From: a virus
Virus record (IMG/VR): IMGVR_UViG_3300047274_000085
Coordinates: 1 to 20,831 of that record
Reading direction: 5' to 3' (one strand)
DNA length: 20,831 nucleotides
Shown: one piece after another, positions 1 to 20,536 of the stretch
Numbering within the stretch: position 1 is the first letter of the stretch
Layout of the letters: each line of letters opens with the position of its first letter
Program-made: the position numbers and the translations under genes
Notes under the pieces: model-generated
Databases searched by the model: none
The model's input: only the letters and a program-made list of their open reading frames with translations
What the model was told of the DNA's origin: nothing

Positions 1-1182
1 CTTAAGAGTAATACCGGTCCTTGATAGTCTATCTCTTGGTCTATGAATAACAGGTCCTATATTTTGTAAATTGTTTTTAGTAATCCTGTGATAATTTTTC
101 TTTCGATCATTTCCAAAGTATCCAGTGTCGATATAGTAGAAATCTCTCCCAGTTGCCCAACATTCTTTAATCTGCTTTCTCTTTCCGAGCCCTCTGAGAG
201 CTACCGGAGTCATTGATGTTGCAGTCTTGTCCCAAAGAGTGATCTGGCCACCCACGCCCATAATAAAATTTTCAAGTACTGGATCATATTTGGCATTTTT
301 TTGAATATGCTTTTCTCCTATGTCGCCTTCATTTACTGCGGCAACTACTTTGTTAGTATTAATCATTTCAATTTCCTTAAATATATCCGCCTTTGTAATT
401 TGATAATACTGTCCTGCCGGATCAACTCTATATTGTATTAATTTATCAACTATGTTTTTAATTTCTTCTGGAAGATATAAAAACTTTTTATCTCTCGATG
501 CTACTGTAACGTCTTCTTCGTAGAGTAATTTCTCCCTCTCCCAGTTCGCACCGTACTCACAATGAAAATAATTTTCAAACCAAGGGCCGCCTTCAGTATA
601 GTGTATAGCTTTAGGTTTTCCATTCTCTGGTTCTTTATACCAGTTTACTAACCAGTTCCACTCGTGACTTATGGAACCTATCTCTTCATCCTTAAGCCAT
701 TGAAATCTGTGTAAGAACGCACCAGTTTCACTGTTGACTAACTCCGGCGTGACTACACTATTCGACGGGTGGCCGCAGTTCCATAGGATCATCGATGACC
801 AATTCTTTCTTGGGTATAGGTGTTGACTCTTACCATCCATCTTAACGGTATTCGTTGGATTATAGTCATGTTGCACAACCATCACAGCATACTGATCATC
901 GGCAAGATTGAATAATTCTTTGATATCTGCTTGCCACAAAAAGTCACAGTCTACAAATACTGCCCAACCTTTGTAATCGGTGAGATGGGGAACTAAGAAT
1001 CTACTAAAAGTGAATTCAGTAGATCCTAGAGAATCTTCGGGTCTCCAGTAGATATTTTTATCCCTTAATTCAGGTAACTTTAAAGGAATAACTTCAGCAT
1101 GTGGCTGATGCCTTAATATACTATGTCTGCATATTTGGTATGCGATATCTTCTCTCGAGTCGTAGCCTACAAATACTTTCAT
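1..1182 (-). CDS. Glycosyltransferase with extra C-terminal domain (3' end cut by window edge)
   Basis: The frame is open for 394 codons from ATG 1182 to the window edge, so the C-terminus is missing. Residues 1-85 read as a nucleotide-diphospho-sugar transferase: a beta-strand start (MKVFVGYDSRED), then a hydrophobic strand ending in VFVDCDFLW with a DxD metal/sugar-nucleotide motif at D78-D80. This resembles family-8-like enzymes. The catalytic part probably runs to about residue 250 (aromatic-rich, YTEGGPWFENY). After about residue 275 a second segment begins, with MGVGGQITLWDK and then FYYIDTGYFGN, which I do not recognise as part of a glycosyltransferase. The start overlaps the stop of the upstream nucleotidyltransferase-cupin gene by four bases (ATGA), so the two are probably translated together. 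The likely role is modifying a phage or host surface glycan, with transcription from the late promoter ahead of its partner. Donor and acceptor cannot be told. The enzyme class is fairly sure; the role is inferred. Confidence 0.75.
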   Translation of the reverse strand, partial: MKVFVGYDSREDIAYQICRHSILRHQPHAEVIPLKLPELRDKNIYWRPEDSLGSTEFTFSRFLVPHLTDYKGWAVFVDCDFLWQADIKELFNLADDQYAVMVVQHDYNPTNTVKMDGKSQHLYPRKNWSSMILWNCGHPSNSVVTPELVNSETGAFLHRFQWLKDEEIGSISHEWNWLVNWYKEPENGKPKAIHYTEGGPWFENYFHCEYGANWEREKLLYEEDVTVASRDKKFLYLPEEIKNIVDKLIQYRVDPAGQYYQITKADIFKEIEMINTNKVVAAVNEGDIGEKHIQKNAKYDPVLENFIMGVGGQITLWDKTATSMTPVALRGLGKRKQIKECWATGRDFYYIDTGYFGNDRKKNYHRITKNNLQNIGPVIHRPRDRLSRTGITLK

Positions 1183-1925
1183 CGTCTTTCTATGTCCTCT
1201 TCCACACACTCAGAGCCGTGTTGTACTTCTAAAATATGACACGGAGTAGTTCCGGTATTGTATGCTCTATGCCAAACTTCTATGCCAATGTCATAACTGC
1301 TGTTTGTTGAGATCTTTACGTTATTTTTTGATCCCAGGTATTCAGTTTCAACATTTATAGTTCCACTTAATACGTGCCAGTGTTCTGATCTTTTAAAATG
1401 CCGTTGCATACTTAAACTCTGTCCAGGCATGACGACCAGCTCTTTTACCTTGTAAACTTTATGGTCATCTAGAACACGCCAGTAACCCCACGATCTTTCC
1501 GTCTTTGGTTCTTTCCATTCTTGCAAGATCCAACTACTAGAATTTTTCTTATCTTCGCCGCCGACGCCAAAAACAAATTCTACATCTTCAAATACCATCT
1601 CCGGTATATTGTCTTTTGTTCGGTCACCGCCGTTAGCAAATATTATTTGATGATTAGGAAAAATATCTTTGACCTTGCGGATAGCATCAACGGCTGTACC
1701 ATCATCATCGTTAAAGTTGATGACTCTATCTACACAATGTAGTTCCCCAATGATAGTAGCTCGCTCTCCCCAAGGTAAGAAAGGCCTACCTTTTTTACGG
1801 GTAAGCCAATCGTTTGAATTTATACCAACAATTAATTTATCGCCAAGTTCTCTTGCAGAGCGAAGATATGCTATGTGTCCAGAATGTAACGGATCAAAAC
1901 CACCAGTAACTAAAACTATTTTCAT
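1179..1925 (-). CDS. Nucleotidyltransferase-cupin fusion (cytidylyltransferase-like + ManC-type isomerase-like domain)
   Basis: A 248-aa two-domain protein. Residues 1-135 are a cytidylyltransferase-like nucleotidyltransferase: TGGFDPLHSGH at 7-17 carries the HxGH motif (H14, H17), followed by NGGDRTK at 98-104 and SSSWI at 129-133. Such enzymes join a nucleotide to a phosphorylated sugar or alcohol. Residues about 145-248 are a cupin like the C-terminal part of type II mannose-6-phosphate isomerase/ManC, with PGQSLSMQRH at 167-176, EHWHVLSGT at 181-189 and a closing ILEVQHGS..EEDIERR. The fusion suggests one protein making or epimerising an activated sugar for the glycosyltransferase that follows with a four-base overlap. 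The ATG lies five bases after a late -10 box, with no Shine-Dalgarno sequence in between. The domains are clear; the substrate is unknown. Confidence 0.85.
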   Translation of the reverse strand: MKIVLVTGGFDPLHSGHIAYLRSARELGDKLIVGINSNDWLTRKKGRPFLPWGERATIIGELHCVDRVINFNDDDGTAVDAIRKVKDIFPNHQIIFANGGDRTKDNIPEMVFEDVEFVFGVGGEDKKNSSSWILQEWKEPKTERSWGYWRVLDDHKVYKVKELVVMPGQSLSMQRHFKRSEHWHVLSGTINVETEYLGSKNNVKISTNSSYDIGIEVWHRAYNTGTTPCHILEVQHGSECVEEDIERR

Positions 1926-4887: not shown

Positions 4888-6684
4888 TTATGCCAAACCG
4901 GCTAGTTTTTTGATTCTATAGCTTTCAGTCATAGATACTAGGTTCTGCATAATGCCATGTGCATGGCGTACAGCATCTTCTCCAAATTTCTTCTCAACTG
5001 CTAGAAGTACACCGGTTTCGCCTTTGGGGAAGTTTCCAGTCTCTCGGTCAAACATACTGCTCACAAATTCTGAAAGCTCATCTTTTGGTTGTTCTTCTTG
5101 GCCAAAGAAATCTTCAATCTGTAGACCGGCTTGGGTCATAGCATCTTGTAGAGTGATTTCTTTTTCACCAAACTTAAACTTATCGCCAGGTTTCATTCCT
5201 GCGGCTTTGGCTCTTTGTACTGCCTGAGCAAATGCATTGCCTTCTCTTTCGATGCTAGCAGTAACCGGCTGTTCTGCAGGTGCTGGCTCTGCCGCGGCAG
5301 GTTCTTCAGCTGGTAGTTCTTCAGCGAATCCTAATTCACTAGCGATATCCGTTCCTCTTTCTTCATCTTTGATTTTGATATAATCTTTGATAACATTTCT
5401 TGCATCGGATTCCGGATTTACATCTGCCAATTCTCTGAATATATCAGACAACTCTTCATCATTAATTAGACCACTCAATGATTCAATAGCGTTCGTGCCA
5501 TCAGTACCCACTGGCAACTCTTCGGCCATGATCTCTTTGAGCTTTTCAATGGCTGTTGAGTTATCACCACCTTTAAACAATGCTCCCGACGATTCACCAA
5601 CTAGTTGATCTAAGAAATATTCATAGTTTTGTAACTCGCTAATTTCTCTAGCCACTGTGTCTTGAACATCTTCACTTTGTGTGGATAATAAATCTTGCGG
5701 GTTCAATTCTTTAACGGGCAATTCACTTTCGTCAACTAACTTATAGATATAAGGAAAAACATTTTTTAGTTCTTCGTTAAATGTTCTAATCGTTAGTCTA
5801 TCAATCCAATCGTTCATTACGTCTTCTGGAATTTCTCTAGACTCTTTGTTTTCAAAAGATTCTGCAAAACTCTGATAGTAGTTTTGATTTTGTAGACCGT
5901 GTATTTCTTTTTTGACTTGATCAATACGCTCTAAAACTTTTGTATGGATACTACCCATTGTTTCAGAAACCATATTGTTACGCTCAACATAACCTTTAAA
6001 CATTCTTAGCTTTGATAATTCTTCGCTGAGCCCAATAATGTGTTCTCCGATAGCATCATAACTGTTGCCGCCATTGGCCACGTGTCTAGCTAGGGCTCTA
6101 GCACCATTTAAGTGCTTATATGGATAGCGGAATCTTTCACCTTGAGAATTTTCAATATAGATGCTCTCAATGTGTTGTGTTCTTCCCGCTGGAAGGTTAT
6201 AGTTTACGGGTTGACTATGCTTAACGATAAGTTTAGCTTCACCAAGATCTTGGTAGCTGGTCTTGCTAGTTCCCCATAATTTACTTTCTGTCATTTGTGG
6301 TTCTCCGTTCCGTTTAGCTAAGAACTGATAATCTCTTTTATCTAAGTTACTCTTTGATATATCACGAGTTTGAAAATTCAACAAATTTTGTTTAGCAAAT
6401 TCGCGTAGTTCTCTTAAAAAATTAAACCAAGATGCTTTTGTTCCGCTAGTTTGATTTTCAACAATGTCGTTGCTATACATAACAACAAGACCGTCTTCTT
6501 CAGATAAACTAACAGAAATAGTTCCAAGCGCATTTCCGTTTTTAGAAAAATCAAACTCAAAAAATCTAGCTAGATTAGGTTCATCTGTGACTTTGCTTTC
6601 TGCATCGCCAAGCTGGATTTTAGAAAATTGTGTTCTAATTTTTCCGAATAATTCTTCCGCAATGATATCAAGGTTTTTATTCAT
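4888..6684 (-). CDS. Conserved phage protein of unknown function, 598 aa
   Basis: I do not recognise a named family, although proteins of this style occur in marine T4-like phages. The N-terminal 240 residues look like a folded alpha/beta part (RFFEFDFSKNG, LVVMYSND, a charged RTQHIESIYIEN strand, RYPYKHLNGARALARHV). Residues 240-450 are helical and charged, and an A/E/P linker (AEELPAEEPAAAEPAPAEQP, about 454-473) leads to a C-terminal part of about 125 residues (GMKPGDKFKFGEKEITLQDAM). The protein starts MNKNLDIIAE; residues 8-10 (IAE) fit the [L/I]xE prohead-protease rule, but this may be chance. The ATG is five bases after the GATAAATA box that overlaps the gp17 stop, so late expression is likely. 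A terminator-like hairpin follows. A structural or head-assembly role is only inference. Confidence 0.85.
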   Translation of the reverse strand: MNKNLDIIAEELFGKIRTQFSKIQLGDAESKVTDEPNLARFFEFDFSKNGNALGTISVSLSEEDGLVVMYSNDIVENQTSGTKASWFNFLRELREFAKQNLLNFQTRDISKSNLDKRDYQFLAKRNGEPQMTESKLWGTSKTSYQDLGEAKLIVKHSQPVNYNLPAGRTQHIESIYIENSQGERFRYPYKHLNGARALARHVANGGNSYDAIGEHIIGLSEELSKLRMFKGYVERNNMVSETMGSIHTKVLERIDQVKKEIHGLQNQNYYQSFAESFENKESREIPEDVMNDWIDRLTIRTFNEELKNVFPYIYKLVDESELPVKELNPQDLLSTQSEDVQDTVAREISELQNYEYFLDQLVGESSGALFKGGDNSTAIEKLKEIMAEELPVGTDGTNAIESLSGLINDEELSDIFRELADVNPESDARNVIKDYIKIKDEERGTDIASELGFAEELPAEEPAAAEPAPAEQPVTASIEREGNAFAQAVQRAKAAGMKPGDKFKFGEKEITLQDAMTQAGLQIEDFFGQEEQPKDELSEFVSSMFDRETGNFPKGETGVLLAVEKKFGEDAVRHAHGIMQNLVSMTESYRIKKLAGLA

Positions 6685-6689
6685 ACGTG

Positions 6690-6697
6690 TATTTATC
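6690..6697 (-). promoter_or_regulatory. Late -10 box GATAAATA for the 598-aa gene
   Basis: GATAAATA, then CACGT, then ATG 6684, on the minus strand. The box includes the TAA stop of gp17 (6693-6695). T4-type spacing predicts a leaderless transcript. Confidence 0.6.
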
Positions 6698-8291
6698 CAA
6701 TGGTTGAGGAAACGAATATAGGCATAGGCATCTCAAAGTCGTCTTCGCCCATGCCTTCGTTGCTAGAGAATGTGTCAAAAACCCTCGAATCCCAATCTGC
6801 TAAAACTTGGCTCATGCGTACTATGAGTAGTAGGGCACTTACAAGATCGTCTTCCTCTCCTACTTTAGCTTTAAAACTTATACCAGTAGCGATAAATGCT
6901 TTTAGTTCAGATATTAGAACTTTAGAATTTATCTTCATTTTTCCAGATTCAATGAGATATTTTAGTCTAGCGGCAGCTGATATTTTAGTTTTATGCGTAG
7001 TGTTAAACCCCTTACGGAATTTTCTAACATGTCCTTTGCGTATGGGCTCGCTAACAAATAATCCCGGAAATTGGTCTTCCCCAATGTCGTTGATGCAGAC
7101 TAGCCCTGCTTCACCTACTGTGTTATTTTCTAAACTCCAATAGATATTAGAGCTATTTTCCTCGCCAATGCTTTCTTGGATATATTTTAAGATTTCTTTT
7201 AAGACTCTAATTTGTCCCTGTATCGGTGTTAGATTATGATGCCACTCTGCTACTTGGATGAAACTTGGTAATTCAAATACTTGTATACCTGCAGAGTTAC
7301 CGCCAGTACCTAGTGCAGGATCTAAAGCAATAGCATATATGTGATCTTTGCTAGGTTCTTTAAACCAGCGTGTTTGCCCCATATTCATGATAGGAGCTTT
7401 GCCTTCCATACCAGCTAGTGTAATGGAGTTAATTAATGTTTCATCATAGACTAAGAATTCGCAGTTATATTCACGACGAAATCGTTCTTCACCGATACGA
7501 CCACGTTCAGCAGTTGCCCATGCTTCGTCACGATCGGGATGTTCATTCCAGTGACAGGTGTAGGGGAAAAATCCGTTGATACCAGTTTCTTGCTCGTTAC
7601 CAAATTCATCAAATTTTTTGTTAGCTTCTTTCCATATTATAGCAAACGTATCCTCGTCTGAGTTAGGAGTAGAAGTAATAATAGCACGACCACCAGTTGC
7701 TAGTGTTGGCGAAATGGAAGTCCAGAATTCATCTGCGATGTTAGGCGGTACGAACGCAAACTCGTCACAGTATAGCAATGATATAGACATACCACGACCA
7801 GTGTTGCCAGTAGTGGTTGTAGACACAATGCGTGACCCATTATCGAATTCTATACTACCTTTGTTATAGTTAATAACACCGCTTCGAATATGATCTGGGC
7901 ACAGTTCATACGCATATCGTATGCGTTGCATGATTTCTTGAGAACCAGTAAACTTGTGAGCAGAAATTAGAATAGTCTGATCCGGGTGGAACATCGCATA
8001 CCATAACAGATATCCTGCCGCGCAGGTAGTCTTACCCATCTGTCGAGGTAACATGTTGATATTAAATCTATGATTGTGATATGCATCTAATAAGCGTACT
8101 TGATACTCAAACGGTTGGAACAGCATCTTACCTCTAACAGGATGCTGTATATAAAAATAATTTTGAGTAAAGTAATGATAACCGGTGTCAGGGTCCGAAC
8201 ACGCAAGAAGGTCCTGAATCTGTTGTTCAGTGAATGTTTCTTTAGTATGTGCTTTTTTGGTTAAAACACCGTCTAATGATTTACTAGCCAT
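6693..8291 (-). CDS. gp17: Terminase large subunit gp17 (packaging ATPase-nuclease)
   Basis: A 532-aa homologue of T4 gp17 (610 aa), the motor that drives DNA into proheads and cuts the concatemer. ATPase domain: Walker A-like PRQMGKTT at 82-89, Walker B LLYCDEF at 172-178 with catalytic E177, and coupling motif TSTP at 206-209. C-terminal RNase H-like nuclease: acidic residues in ALDPALG (D324), SLENNT (E388) and EEDDLVSALL (D481/D482). The ATG at 8291 is chosen because the protein then begins MASKSLDG and the codon sits five bases after a GTAAATA late box. An upstream GTG at 8321 lies inside a terminator hairpin and is rejected. No Shine-Dalgarno is present. The partner small subunit gp16 lies two genes upstream in the same direction. 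Confidence 0.96.
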   Translation of the reverse strand: MASKSLDGVLTKKAHTKETFTEQQIQDLLACSDPDTGYHYFTQNYFYIQHPVRGKMLFQPFEYQVRLLDAYHNHRFNINMLPRQMGKTTCAAGYLLWYAMFHPDQTILISAHKFTGSQEIMQRIRYAYELCPDHIRSGVINYNKGSIEFDNGSRIVSTTTTGNTGRGMSISLLYCDEFAFVPPNIADEFWTSISPTLATGGRAIITSTPNSDEDTFAIIWKEANKKFDEFGNEQETGINGFFPYTCHWNEHPDRDEAWATAERGRIGEERFRREYNCEFLVYDETLINSITLAGMEGKAPIMNMGQTRWFKEPSKDHIYAIALDPALGTGGNSAGIQVFELPSFIQVAEWHHNLTPIQGQIRVLKEILKYIQESIGEENSSNIYWSLENNTVGEAGLVCINDIGEDQFPGLFVSEPIRKGHVRKFRKGFNTTHKTKISAAARLKYLIESGKMKINSKVLISELKAFIATGISFKAKVGEEDDLVSALLLIVRMSQVLADWDSRVFDTFSSNEGMGEDDFEMPMPIFVSSTIG

Positions 8292-8351: not shown

Positions 8352-8813
8352 TTAACGACTCTTGATTTCTTGATACAAGTTACTAAGTCTTGTTGTTAGA
8401 GATTCCATAGCCATAGGATTGCCACCGCCATTTGCCGCAGGAGCTTCTAATCCTTTGCTATGTAGATCATCACCTGTAGCTGTTACATCTGCTACATCGC
8501 CGTAGGTTTCTTCAGGACTGTTAGCCAGTGCTTCCTGCTCAACTCCGTCGCCCAGTGATTTGATCATAATAGGCATTTCATCACCCATGCCATCGTCTTT
8601 TTCTAGATTTCTCAAAATATCTAAAAGATCTTTGATTCCACCAGAACCAGAACCGCTCATGTTAACACTCATGTTAACTGAATCTTGTTGTCCAGGAGAT
8701 GACATTGACATAGGTCCTGGGCCCATACCGCACTCTTCTTCAACGTCAAGTTTTTCTTCTTGTACTGGCTGATCTAATTCAGCCATTCTTTGCATTAATT
8801 CTTGAAAGTTCAT
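8352..8813 (-). CDS. Met/Gly/Ser-rich protein of unknown function, 153 aa
   Basis: An acidic protein with a short helix at the start (MNFQELMQRMAELDQ), a low-complexity stretch rich in M, G, S and P (about residues 29-60, including NMSVNMSGSGSGGIKDLLDI), and a final helix (LTTRLSNLYQEIKSR). The central NMSVNMSGSG...IKDLLDIL pattern is like small proteins beside head genes in other marine T4-like phages, but no function is known to me. The first ATG overlaps the stop of the 184-aa gene by four bases (ATGA), and AAAGGA lies eight bases upstream, so translation is coupled. A terminator follows directly. With its position between gp16 and gp17 and its mostly disordered make-up, a scaffold, core or packaging helper role is possible. 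Confidence 0.8.
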   Translation of the reverse strand: MNFQELMQRMAELDQPVQEEKLDVEEECGMGPGPMSMSSPGQQDSVNMSVNMSGSGSGGIKDLLDILRNLEKDDGMGDEMPIMIKSLGDGVEQEALANSPEETYGDVADVTATGDDLHSKGLEAPAANGGGNPMAMESLTTRLSNLYQEIKSR

Positions 8814-9364
8814 TTTTCTGTTCCTTTAGGTGCTTTTTTAGCTAGGATAGCATCATTGACACCTTTGTATTGTTGTGGCTCGTGTTCTTTTCTAGTTTTA
8901 GATAATTCTTTTAGAAAATTAGCGACTCCTTTATCCCCTACTACTTTTTGATTATTTTCTTTTTCATAATCTTGAGTTAGTAGAGCCTTTTCGCTCTTTT
9001 CAGAAGCAGAATTTTCTGCATTTAGTTCTGCTTCCTCTTCTTCTTTTAAGCTACGAACACGAATACACTGAGCACTCATTCCTGTATGCTCAGAAATATA
9101 ATTTGTTAGAACAGTACTAGTTGTTGGATATTCTAGTTCAATATCAAATACTGTTACTTGTGCATTTTCCATCGCAGGAAAATCTACAAGTTTATTTTGT
9201 ATAGGTGCTGTTTTTGTTTTTGCAAATTTGCTAACTTGATATTTTTTAAGAGCAGTTTCTGTAGTCACTTCAAAATGTTCGGGAAGATCACCCGCCACTT
9301 TTAGCTTAAACACATACTTGTTAGCTTCTTTACTTTCGATTAGATAGTCTGTAAACGATTTCAT
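8810..9364 (-). CDS. Candidate internal head/core protein with capsid-targeting-like N-terminus
   Basis: A 184-aa protein beginning MKSFTDYLIESKEAN. T4 internal proteins begin MKTYQEFIAE and are cut by the gp21 protease after an [L/I]xE triplet at residues 8-10. Here residues 8-10 are LIE in the same place, so the first ten residues look like a capsid-targeting sequence. Residues about 15-105 form a plausible small folded domain, and the rest is charged and probably disordered (EEEEAELNAENSASEKSE). The start has AGGA about eight bases upstream and a GATAAATA late box 18 bases upstream. It overlaps the next gene by four bases and follows gp16. Delivery into the head as an internal or core protein is inference from the N-terminus. 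Confidence 0.8.
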   Translation of the reverse strand: MKSFTDYLIESKEANKYVFKLKVAGDLPEHFEVTTETALKKYQVSKFAKTKTAPIQNKLVDFPAMENAQVTVFDIELEYPTTSTVLTNYISEHTGMSAQCIRVRSLKEEEEAELNAENSASEKSEKALLTQDYEKENNQKVVGDKGVANFLKELSKTRKEHEPQQYKGVNDAILAKKAPKGTEK

Positions 9365-9381
9365 ATTAAAATCCTGATACC

Positions 9382-9870
9382 TTATTTATCCATGTTTTTA
9401 AGTTTTTCTAGAAGACTATTTCGATCAGTTACTATCACGCCGTTGCCTGATATGTTTATACCATTGTCTTCTGGATTCGCATCTTGATCGAGTTTAGCTT
9501 TCTTAAGCTGTAACTCAATCATTTTTAATTTTTTATCAATCTTTGCGGCTTTAGCGTCTATAGCATTTTTAAGCATTGAGCCTGCTACTTCAAAAATTCT
9601 TCCAGAATATCTCGCTTCAACGTTCATGCCTAGATCCATAAGGTCGTCATAAGCATCTGTAGCTCGCTGTGCTAGAGAATCAAATTCTGCATCGCTGGCA
9701 TCACCTAGACCTTTTACTGCGGGCAAGGATGCTGAAATCTTATCTAATTCATTGATGTCTCTAAAGAAAGTTTGTGCTTCTTCTTTTTTAGCCAAATCTT
9801 TAGACTTCTCGTCTTTTTTAACGATCTTTTTAGTTTCAGGTAAATTAAGAATTTCTTCTAGTTTCTTCAT
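9382..9870 (-). CDS. gp16: Terminase small subunit gp16
   Basis: A 162-aa protein, nearly the length of T4 gp16 (164 aa). The central region (ATDAYDDLMDLGMNVEARYSG, then RIFEVAGSMLKNAIDAKAAK and a charged helix KKLKMIELQLKKAKL) fits the helical oligomerisation core of T4-family small terminases, which in T4 reads as a run of helices around HPRAFEVTATLMKTI. The flanking N- and C-termini are charged and likely flexible. gp16 forms a ring that stimulates gp17 and helps recognise DNA for packaging. It follows gp4 and precedes the candidate internal protein. The ATG lies five bases after GATAAGTA, a one-base variant of the late box that overlaps the gp4 stop. No clear Shine-Dalgarno is present. 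Confidence 0.85.
   Translation of the reverse strand: MKKLEEILNLPETKKIVKKDEKSKDLAKKEEAQTFFRDINELDKISASLPAVKGLGDASDAEFDSLAQRATDAYDDLMDLGMNVEARYSGRIFEVAGSMLKNAIDAKAAKIDKKLKMIELQLKKAKLDQDANPEDNGINISGNGVIVTDRNSLLEKLKNMDK
9383..9390 (-). promoter_or_regulatory. Late -10 box GATAAATA for the 184-aa gene
   Basis: GATAAATA on the minus strand overlaps the gp16 stop (TAA 9382-9384). It predicts a start near 9377 and a 13-base leader that contains AGGA before ATG 9364. Confidence 0.55.
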
Positions 9871-9875
9871 ATAAT

Positions 9876-9883
9876 TACTTATC
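9876..9883 (-). promoter_or_regulatory. Variant late -10 box GATAAGTA for gp16
   Basis: GATAAGTA, ATTAT, ATG on the minus strand, one base off the usual box but with the same five-base spacing. It contains the gp4 stop TAA (9879-9881). Confidence 0.4.
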
Positions 9884-10316
9884 GTTTTGCGCCGTTGTGG
9901 AATAAGTCTTGTTCATTGAGTATCCTAAATTTTATACCCTTTGATTTACACCAAGTCTGTGCAGCCTGCCATTTGGCAAGATTTTTTACATACTGCATTT
10001 GATTATGTCGATTCTTGCCAACCTTTTCTCGTAGAGTTTGATTTTGTGGTTTTACTTCGATTAACTCAACATTCATCTTATTATTCTTATCTACATATTG
10101 TATAAAAAAATCTGGAACATATATAGTTTGTTTGCCAGTCAACGGACAACGATAAGGTATACTGATAGCTTCACTGGCCCACTTTTGTATTGATGGATTA
10201 TTGTCGCAGAATCTCATGAACGCCCATTCCCATGAACTCCTGTATGTTGGACTTTTATTGCCTACATATTTTTCAGGGTTTTGTAGCGTATATTTTCCTT
10301 GAGCAAATCGACTCAT
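9879..10316 (-). CDS. gp4: Head completion protein gp4 (nuclease-like)
   Basis: A 145-aa homologue of T4 gp4 (150 aa). The N-terminus (GKYTLQNPEKYVGNKSPTYRSSWEWAFMRF) matches the T4 pattern of GKW..KNI.KY...P...TYRSNWE, and the middle carries a PD-(D/E)xK-like nuclease signature: PDFFIQY at about 63-69 and an ELIEVKP strand (E-x-K) at about 78-84. The C-terminus KWQAAQTWCKSKGIKFRILNE closely follows T4 KWKAAQSLAEKRGIKFRILTE. gp4 acts in head completion before tail joining, probably trimming or sealing packaged DNA. The start overlaps the stop of the 123-aa gene by four bases, with AAGG close upstream. Confidence 0.93.
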   Translation of the reverse strand: MSRFAQGKYTLQNPEKYVGNKSPTYRSSWEWAFMRFCDNNPSIQKWASEAISIPYRCPLTGKQTIYVPDFFIQYVDKNNKMNVELIEVKPQNQTLREKVGKNRHNQMQYVKNLAKWQAAQTWCKSKGIKFRILNEQDLFHNGAKR

Positions 10317-18959: not shown

Positions 18960-20536
18960 TGCAGTTTTTCTACGACGGTCAAATAAGAAGATATATTATA
19001 CAAGTTATTCGTTTAATGTCTAACTTTGTAGTCAAACACGGCGACGGCACTCTCCAACGAGTTCCAGTAATGTACGGCGACATTGATCGCCAGGCTGCAC
19101 ATATAATCAATCAAGGTTCTGAAAACAATCTAAACTCTGCTCCAAGGATCGCAGTTTATGTTACTGATTTAGATCTTGATAGAACTAGACTAGGTGATGC
19201 TACTCACGTAGGAAAAGTACATATTAGAGAAAGATCTATCGAAGACGGTTCATATACTAGTCAACAAGGACAAAACTATACTGTTGAACGTTTGATGCCT
19301 ACTCCCTACAAATTAACTCTTAAGGTTGATATATGGAGTACTAGCACAGAACAAAAATTACAGATATTAGAACAAATTTTAGTATTGTTTAATCCGAGTT
19401 TAGAAATACAGACTACAGACAATTTTGTTGACTGGACCAGTTTAAGTGTTGTTGAACTAGGTGATGTAACATTTAGTTCAAGATCGATCCCAGTAGGTAC
19501 TAACATCAGCATTGACGTTGCTAGTTTAAGTTTAGAAACACCTATATGGATCACACCTCCTGCTAAGGTTAAGAAACTCGGTGTTGTTACTAACATCATT
19601 GCTGGAGTCTTTAGTACAGTTGGAGCTCCAGAAACCGGTTACATTGACGGGCTAGGCACCGACATTATGGGCGGTCAAGCATATCCTAGCAATCCTATCC
19701 TTAATCAAAAAACCACCATCGGTAATTTTGACATTGTTGTCACTGAAGGTAGTATTAGACTAGTAAGCAATACAGATCCAGGAAGTTATCTAGCTTGGAC
19801 TATGATCCTTGATCAAAGCCCCGGAACCTATCAAGCAGGACTCAGCAAGATTTATCTACTACAAAGTGACGGATCAGAGATCGTTGGATACATCAGTTTA
19901 AATCCGTTAGATGGCACATTCCTGTCTGTTAATTGGGATGAAGACACGTATCCATCAAATACGTCAATCGAAGGCCCAGCTAGAGATTCAAACTCGTGGG
20001 GATCTTTTGACGCAATCATTGATCCGACTACGACCGGTCCTAGCAATTTAGAAATAGGTACTAGATATCTTATCATTGAAAGCATCGGAGGTGGCGTAAG
20101 AGATACGTTTACTACTACTAGTAGAATCCAAACCATCAACACAGGTGTAGCATTTGATAAAGTTAATGAGTTCAAATTACTCGTCGACGATGCAGAGGTT
20201 GGTGCAAATTCAGCCAACAGGAACGGAAATTTTTATATCGTAGCTGACGAAATTATTCCTGCTGGCAGTGTTGTAACATATATACTTAACTTCAACGAAG
20301 ACGGGCCGGATGCTTGGAAAAATAGCAACAGTAGTGACTTTATAGCAGAAGCTAACGATATCATCGAGTGGGACGGCGATACTTGGCACGTAGTATTTTC
20401 GGCGCAAGAGCACGACGATGTTATTGTTTATCAGACAAACATCTATACTCTAGTTCAATATAAGTGGAATGGAGTGAGTTGGGTCAAGTCCTTCGACGGA
20501 GAATATAGGCGAGGCGAATGGAGACTGGAACTTTAA
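18959..20536 (+). CDS. gp15: Tail sheath terminator/stabiliser gp15 with long C-terminal extension
   Basis: A 525-aa homologue of T4 gp15 (272 aa), the ring that caps tube and sheath and joins the tail to the neck. The conserved part covers about residues 1-200: FFYDGQIRRYIIQVIRLMSN, RVPVMYGD, NYTVERLMPTPYKLTLKVDIW, QKLQILEQILVLFNP and a closing LSLETPIWITPP. Residues 205-525 are extra and rich in G, S and T. They end in two tryptophan-rich modules, IIEWDGDTWHVVF at 468-480 and VQYKWNGVSWVKSFDGEYRRGEW at 499-521, like those in gp14 and gp18. AAGGCGG lies eight bases before the ATG, inside gp14, and the stop and start overlap (TAATG), so it is translationally coupled to gp14. Confidence 0.9.
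   Translation: MQFFYDGQIRRYIIQVIRLMSNFVVKHGDGTLQRVPVMYGDIDRQAAHIINQGSENNLNSAPRIAVYVTDLDLDRTRLGDATHVGKVHIRERSIEDGSYTSQQGQNYTVERLMPTPYKLTLKVDIWSTSTEQKLQILEQILVLFNPSLEIQTTDNFVDWTSLSVVELGDVTFSSRSIPVGTNISIDVASLSLETPIWITPPAKVKKLGVVTNIIAGVFSTVGAPETGYIDGLGTDIMGGQAYPSNPILNQKTTIGNFDIVVTEGSIRLVSNTDPGSYLAWTMILDQSPGTYQAGLSKIYLLQSDGSEIVGYISLNPLDGTFLSVNWDEDTYPSNTSIEGPARDSNSWGSFDAIIDPTTTGPSNLEIGTRYLIIESIGGGVRDTFTTTSRIQTINTGVAFDKVNEFKLLVDDAEVGANSANRNGNFYIVADEIIPAGSVVTYILNFNEDGPDAWKNSNSSDFIAEANDIIEWDGDTWHVVFSAQEHDDVIVYQTNIYTLVQYKWNGVSWVKSFDGEYRRGEWRLEL

What the first reader, a model, noticed from the sequence alone, without database searches (positions are those of the whole stretch)
9335..9364. Capsid-targeting-like N-terminus on the 184-aa protein
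MKSFTDYLIE-S parallels the T4 internal-protein signal MKTYQEFIAE-A: same length, an MK start, aromatic residue at position 4 or 7, and an [L/I]xE cleavage triplet at residues 8-10. This predicts that the rest of the protein is packed into the head and may be injected as a host-directed effector. The 598-aa protein (MNKNLDIIAE) has the triplet at the same place, more weakly.
Basis: partly seen in the sequence, partly recalled or inferred. Interest (0 to 1): 0.72.

Follow-up and report, generated by a model that had tools for sequence, protein, structure and literature searches.

The report
T4-style prohead signal on head protein
An uncharacterised protein of a giant T4-related phage starts with a ten-residue tag matching the one T4 uses to send proteins into its growing head and then cut the tag off; relatives show that the tag is real and conserved, but the protein looks like a standard head component and not an injected weapon.

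Summary
MKSFTDYLIE-S (residues 1-11 of the ORF at 8810-9364, minus strand) matches the T4 capsid-targeting sequence at the four positions known from T4 genetics: targeting residues 4 and 7, processing residues 8 and 10. In 85 environmental relatives residue 8 is L or I in all, residue 10 is E in 84, residue 9 is almost free, and a linker of variable length follows. Genome scans find this pattern at very few other starts, mainly the scaffold genes of the same phages and T4's ipII, ipIII and gp24. Every relative genome examined has a gp21-type protease, and their major capsid proteins carry LxE-type cleavage sites.

The protein is a fast-evolving but universal, syntenic core gene of T4-related jumbo phages (PHROG 14802, beside the terminase genes). 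Homologues are in the virions of PA5oct and CBB. That fits a conserved minor head protein better than a variable injected effector. In RaK2-like phages residue 10 drifts to D, A or S; in T4, Asp-10 blocks cleavage but not targeting. PA5oct has lost the triplet. The 598-aa protein's IAE is not conserved.

Cleavage itself is inferred, not shown. This is a new member of a known kind.

The parts
9335..9364 (-). Residues 1-10, MKSFTDYLIE: predicted T4-type targeting sequence / propeptide
   Evidence: Alignment of 85 environmental homologues and N-terminal scans of eight genomes
9335..9343 (-). Triplet LIE (residues 8-10), predicted gp21-type recognition site; predicted cut between 9335 and 9334, before Ser11
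   Evidence: [LI]8 in 85/85 and E10 in 84/85 environmental homologues; the only [LI]xE triplet of this protein that is near-universal (others 63, 10, 14 and 52 of 85)
9372..9375 (-). AGGA, ribosome-binding site seven bases before the ATG
   Evidence: Read from the sequence
8813..9334 (-). Predicted mature protein, residues 11-184 (starts SKEANK): a beta-alpha-beta-beta-alpha-beta domain (about 17-105) and a helical, charged C-terminal part
   Evidence: AlphaFold2 model, mean pLDDT 65.7, pTM 0.44; PHROG 14802 'virion structural protein' E 3.5e-8
9382..9870 (-). 162-aa terminase small subunit-like gene (conserved neighbour)
   Evidence: phrog_445 terminase small subunit E 1.6e-6; synteny
9879..10316 (-). 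gp4-like head completion / head closure gene (conserved neighbour)
   Evidence: phrog_218 E 2.3e-45, TnsA-like nuclease domain
8352..8813 (-). 153-aa protein, fast-evolving; in the place of PA5oct structural protein gp281
   Evidence: (gene order)
6693..8291 (-). Terminase large subunit (gp17-like)
   Evidence: phrog_36964 E 8e-121, Terminase_6N
4888..6684 (-).
   Evidence: phrog_13484 virion structural protein

Best explanation
The 184-aa protein is a conserved minor head protein of a T4-related jumbo phage. Its first ten residues form a T4-type propeptide. The hydrophobic face (F4, Y7, L8) binds the prohead core or scaffold and brings the protein into the prohead. The S77 (gp21-type) protease then cuts after LIE (Glu10). 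The 174-residue mature form, starting SKEANK, stays in the head. In the RaK2-like branch the protein keeps the targeting residues but has mostly lost the cut. Shown here: the conserved pattern, its rarity elsewhere, synteny, and virion membership of homologues. Inferred: binding to the core, the cut at Glu10, and location inside the head.
For: Residues 4, 7, 8 and 10 are kept and residue 9 is free in 85 environmental homologues. These are the positions that T4 genetics assigns to targeting (4, 7) and processing (8, 10), and gp21 cuts after L/I-X-E (PMC9026906). Among starts with an ATG and ribosome site, the pattern is the only one in the window and, in the 383-kb relative G001, occurs only on its homologue. 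In 121Q, RaK2 and Vibrio 2.275 it also marks the gene between protease and capsid protein (scaffold), and in T4 ipII, ipIII and gp24. S77 protease in 7 of 7 relatives. Capsid proteins of those relatives have an LxE (LFE in RaK2) followed by S, N or T at the expected cleavage position, e.g. KYLAE|SASAGAT in G001. Several homologues match the T4 internal head protein family phrog_2667 over residues 1 to about 45, best E 0.0016. Homologues are in virions: CBB_210, PA5oct gp282. Place between small and large terminase in most relatives.
Against: No N-terminal peptide of any homologue has been reported in the papers read. PA5oct's virion homologue reads MKSFRDYYDAS, without the triplet, although its capsid protein keeps LVE; Phosso reads LSS; RaK2-like phages have D, A or S at 10. 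So cleavage cannot be essential across the whole family. F4-Y7-L8 could simply be one face of an N-terminal helix; the neighbouring terminase small subunit has a similar face (MKKLEEILNL). The internal-protein profile matches are weak.
Confidence: 0.72

Rival explanations
1. Injected effector: the mature protein is carried with the DNA and acts on the host, like T4 IPI or Alt.
For: Same propeptide design as the T4 internal proteins (PMC9026906); weak phrog_2667 matches; it evolves faster than most neighbours (49% to G001 against 55-88% for UvsY, UvsX, TerL, TerS, gp4, tube and sheath).
Against: Single-copy, syntenic core gene present in every relative examined, from hosts as different as Agrobacterium, Pseudomonas, Vibrio and Klebsiella; T4 internal proteins are variable (PMC9026906). 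T4 gp24, a shell protein, carries the same kind of propeptide.
Confidence: 0.13
2. The N-terminus is just an amphipathic helix that docks the protein to a partner in the neck or terminase complex; there is no targeting and no cleavage.
For: Residues 4, 7, 8 (and 11) lie on one helical face; the model has a helix at 4-14; RaK2-like phages keep 4, 7 and 8 while 10 drifts; the terminase small subunit has a similar face.
Against: Glu10 lies off that face yet is kept in 84/85 environmental homologues while residue 9 is free, and substitutions at 8 are only to Ile, which fits the protease motif [LI]xE better than a docking helix.
Confidence: 0.13
3. Chance resemblance on an unrelated protein.
For: A bare [LI]xE near the N-terminus is common and not linked to virion membership in PA5oct; PA5oct, Phosso and RaK2 lack it.
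Against: Conservation in 85 environmental sequences and recovery of known head genes by the same pattern.
Confidence: 0.02

Closest known systems
T4 internal proteins IPII and IPIII (capsid-targeting sequence MKTYQEFIAE)
   Same: Ten-residue N-terminus, MK start, aromatic/hydrophobic at 4 and 7, [LI] at 8, E at 10, small residue next
   Different: The rest is unrelated; here the gene is conserved and syntenic beside the terminase genes, while T4 internal proteins are variable. Injection not shown here.
T4 gp24, capsid vertex protein
   Same: Same pattern, MAKINELLRES, and the same P1' Ser
   Different: Not a gp23/gp24-like sequence or length; no sign that it is a shell protein
gp22-like scaffold of 121Q, RaK2 and Vibrio 2.275 (MSKLEKLLKES)
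   Same: Same N-terminal pattern in the same genomes
   Different: Scaffold gene lies between protease and capsid gene and encodes an unrelated, longer protein (365-371 aa)
PHROG 14802 virion structural protein (RaK2 ORF047, 121Q gp557, CBB_210, PA5oct gp282)
   Same: Same family, same gene neighbourhood, virion members known from mass spectrometry
   Different: RaK2-like members mostly lack Glu10; PA5oct lacks the triplet

Membership tests
PHROG 14802 (jumbo-phage virion structural protein) | Profile match over most of the protein | tested here: met
   E 3.5e-8 over residues 3-167; all 27 aligned homologues match
PHROG 14802 (jumbo-phage virion structural protein) | Gene lies next to gp4-like and terminase genes | tested here: met
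   in Phosso and Atu_ph07 ribonucleotide reductase and other genes are inserted upstream
T4-type capsid-targeting sequence | Hydrophobic/aromatic residues at 4 and 7 | tested here: met
   F4, Y7; kept in 85/85 environmental homologues
T4-type capsid-targeting sequence | [LI]-x-E at residues 8-10 | tested here: met
   LIE; 84/85 environmental homologues; not met in PA5oct, Phosso and most RaK2-like members
T4-type capsid-targeting sequence | Sufficient to bring a foreign protein into the head | not testable with these tools
   Needs a fusion experiment
Substrate of a gp21-type (S77) prohead protease | Protease of this type encoded by the phage | tested here: inconclusive
   Present in 7 of 7 relatives; the window is a 20.8-kb fragment without that region
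Substrate of a gp21-type (S77) prohead protease | Mature protein in the virion starts after the triplet | not testable with these tools
   No N-terminal peptide data found; supplementary files not available
T4 internal (injected) proteins | Mature part homologous to a T4 internal protein | tested here: not met
   phrog_2667 matches only residues 1 to about 45 of some homologues and is weak, none for the window protein itself
T4 internal (injected) proteins | Ejected into the host with the DNA | not testable with these tools
   Needs infection experiments

The most novel reading that the evidence does not exclude
A widespread family of environmental jumbo phages carries a universal, terminase-linked head protein that uses the T4 targeting-and-cleavage tag, and its mature form is ejected with the genome as a core infection factor common to all these phages.
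Probability: 0.1. Interest if true: 0.72.

Novelty: new member of a known kind. Interest (0 to 1): 0.46.

Why it matters
It assigns a likely place and a maturation step to an unnamed core head protein that is very common in environmental phage data (at least 563 matching stretches). It also suggests that the T4 targeting tag is not confined to variable internal proteins. The family contains a natural experiment: relatives with Glu10 should be cut, and relatives with Asp10 (RaK2, K64-1) should be targeted but left uncut, as found for T4 mutants.

Tried and rejected
Bare [LI]xE near the N-terminus as a marker of virion proteins in PA5oct: no association. The 598-aa protein as a second carrier: triplet not conserved. 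The weak DUF87/HerA match (E 0.0058, below the Pfam cut-off): ignored. Solved structures by sequence: nothing. Fold search: no PDB match at E <= 0.001; ribosomal protein S6 and ACT-like ferredoxin folds are among the best, around E 0.003-0.03, with a modest model, so no function was read from it. Viral structures: the best hits are unnamed proteins, one of them from Atu_ph07. The Atu_ph07 start at 152425 that fits the pattern is antisense inside another gene. Papers on RaK2, CBB and Atu_ph07 give virion data but no N-terminal peptides for this protein in the main text. No paper found connects a targeting sequence with this phage group; those found concern other phages such as SPN3US, P1 and P22.

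Full report
What is there. The window is a 20.8-kb virus record from a T4-related jumbo myophage. On the minus strand run sheath, two tube genes, a 123-aa gene, a gp4-like head completion gene, a terminase small subunit-like gene (162 aa), the 184-aa gene, a 153-aa gene, terminase large subunit, the 598-aa gene, gp32-like, UvsX and UvsY (gp32 and UvsX by similarity to relatives). The order matches Pseudomonas phage PA5oct and, with insertions or replacements, Sinorhizobium Phosso, Agrobacterium Atu_ph07, Vibrio 2.275.O, Escherichia 121Q and Klebsiella RaK2. The 184-aa ORF has a proper ribosome site (AGGA, 9375-9372) and only seven in-frame codons before its ATG, so the N-terminus is secure.

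The motif. MKSFTDYLIE-S has F4, Y7, L8 and E10.

Conservation. In 27 sequences (the window protein and 26 IMG/VR homologues; median pairwise identity 35%, lowest 27%), L8 and E10 are among 15 invariant columns besides Met1. With 59 further distinct homologues (85 sequences long enough to align), residue 8 is L (80) or I (5), residue 10 is E in 84 of 85 (one G, L332), residues 4 and 7 are hydrophobic or aromatic in all, residue 9 is free, residue 11 is S in 75, and a two-residue length difference follows at 12-13. Some homologues carry one extra N-terminal residue, so these are aligned positions. Four other [LI]xE triplets in the protein are conserved in 63, 10, 14 and 52 of 85. A fixed L/I and E around a free residue is what a protease site would leave; a docking helix alone does not explain Glu10.

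Specificity. The four-position pattern was sought at gene starts of G001 (a 383-kb relative), PA5oct, 121Q, RaK2, Vibrio 2.275, Atu_ph07, Phosso and T4. It is the start of 12 of 4,214 predicted genes; the rate after internal methionines (15 of 14,405) would give 4.4. In the stricter scan (ATG plus ribosome site, with the window added) 15 starts remain: the 184-aa family in the window, G001, 121Q, Vibrio and Atu_ph07; the scaffold in 121Q, RaK2 and Vibrio; ipII, ipIII and gp24 in T4; and four others, one of them antisense inside a gene. 'Scaffold' rests on position between the S77 protease and the capsid gene, not on a profile match. The hits are few and related by descent, so the identity of the genes says more than the count. 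As a check that failed, the bare triplet near the N-terminus does not mark virion proteins in PA5oct.

Protease. All seven jumbo relatives have an S77 protease above the curated cut-off. Their capsid proteins carry an LxE-type site just before the conserved AxxGxTxxGN stretch, for example KYLAE|SASAGAT (G001), RFLVE|NASAGAT (PA5oct) and LME|NATAGAT (Atu_ph07). These cut sites are inferred by analogy with T4 gp23.

Exceptions. RaK2, K64-1, Muenster, BF, XbC2 and Hallingskeid have Asp at 10; XaC1 has Ala; Munch and Phosso have Ser; PA5oct reads YDAS. CBB, GAP32, 121Q, Vibrio and Atu_ph07 have Glu. Residues 4, 7 and 8 are kept in nearly all. The simplest reading is that targeting is the more general function and that cleavage has been lost several times in the cultured RaK2-like branch and in PA5oct and Phosso.

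Virion membership. CBB_210, the CBB homologue, was found with 13 unique peptides and 60.5% coverage (PMC5259590). PA5oct gp282 is annotated as a structural protein by ESI-MS/MS. Homologues in 121Q, GAP32 and RaK2 are annotated as structural. None of this says whether residues 1-10 are present.

Effector or head part. T4 internal proteins are described as not highly conserved and linked to the arms race. The 184-aa family is instead present, single and syntenic in every relative examined. It evolves faster than most neighbours (49% to G001), which leaves some room for the effector reading. The profile for T4 internal head proteins (phrog_2667) matches about half of the 20 members scanned one by one, always from residue 1 to about 45, best E 0.0016, but not the window protein itself; this most likely reflects the tag and not shared mature parts. 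The AlphaFold2 model (pLDDT 65.7) suggests an N-terminal helix and a ferredoxin-like domain; fold searches gave no informative relative.

The 598-aa protein. Its IAE at 8-10 is IAN, IAS, VAD, IAK or IAD in close relatives and absent in others. It is not a second carrier.

Verdict. The most likely mechanism is core targeting followed by cleavage after Glu10, on a conserved minor head protein. Injection is possible but not favoured. The family and the signal type are both known; their combination on a universal core gene, and the natural Glu/Asp split, appear not to have been described in the papers searched here.

Noticed in passing
NC_071039.1 (PA5oct) 260677-262300, minus strand (L260): Three adjacent genes start MRLNEINLIE-T, MKILEFNLTE-K and MKLSEICILE-S, each with [LI]xE at 8-10; the first two products (gp105, gp104) are annotated as virion proteins by mass spectrometry. 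Candidate packaged proteins of PA5oct.
   Followed up: partly
NC_000866.4 (T4) 18966-19130, minus strand (gene 61.1; L272): The 54-aa product starts MKTFKEFIKE-D, closely like the T4 targeting sequence; annotated only as hypothetical.
   Followed up: no
NC_071039.1 (PA5oct) 180349-181020 (L262): A second gene annotated as head maturation protease (gp212, ESI-MS/MS), separate from gp331 beside the capsid gene.
   Followed up: no
Head clusters of PA5oct, 121Q, RaK2 and Vibrio 2.275 (gene after the portal gene): The small (73-80 aa) core protein begins with an [LI]xE close to the start in several phages (e.g. MKLVELFEA, MLKDIFESS, MKINDIITEG), which may be another protease site.
   Followed up: partly
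window 1179-1925, minus strand: 248-aa protein that reads as a nucleotidyltransferase (HxGH motif) joined to a cupin-like domain; of the eight genomes compared only G001 has a partial match.
   Followed up: no
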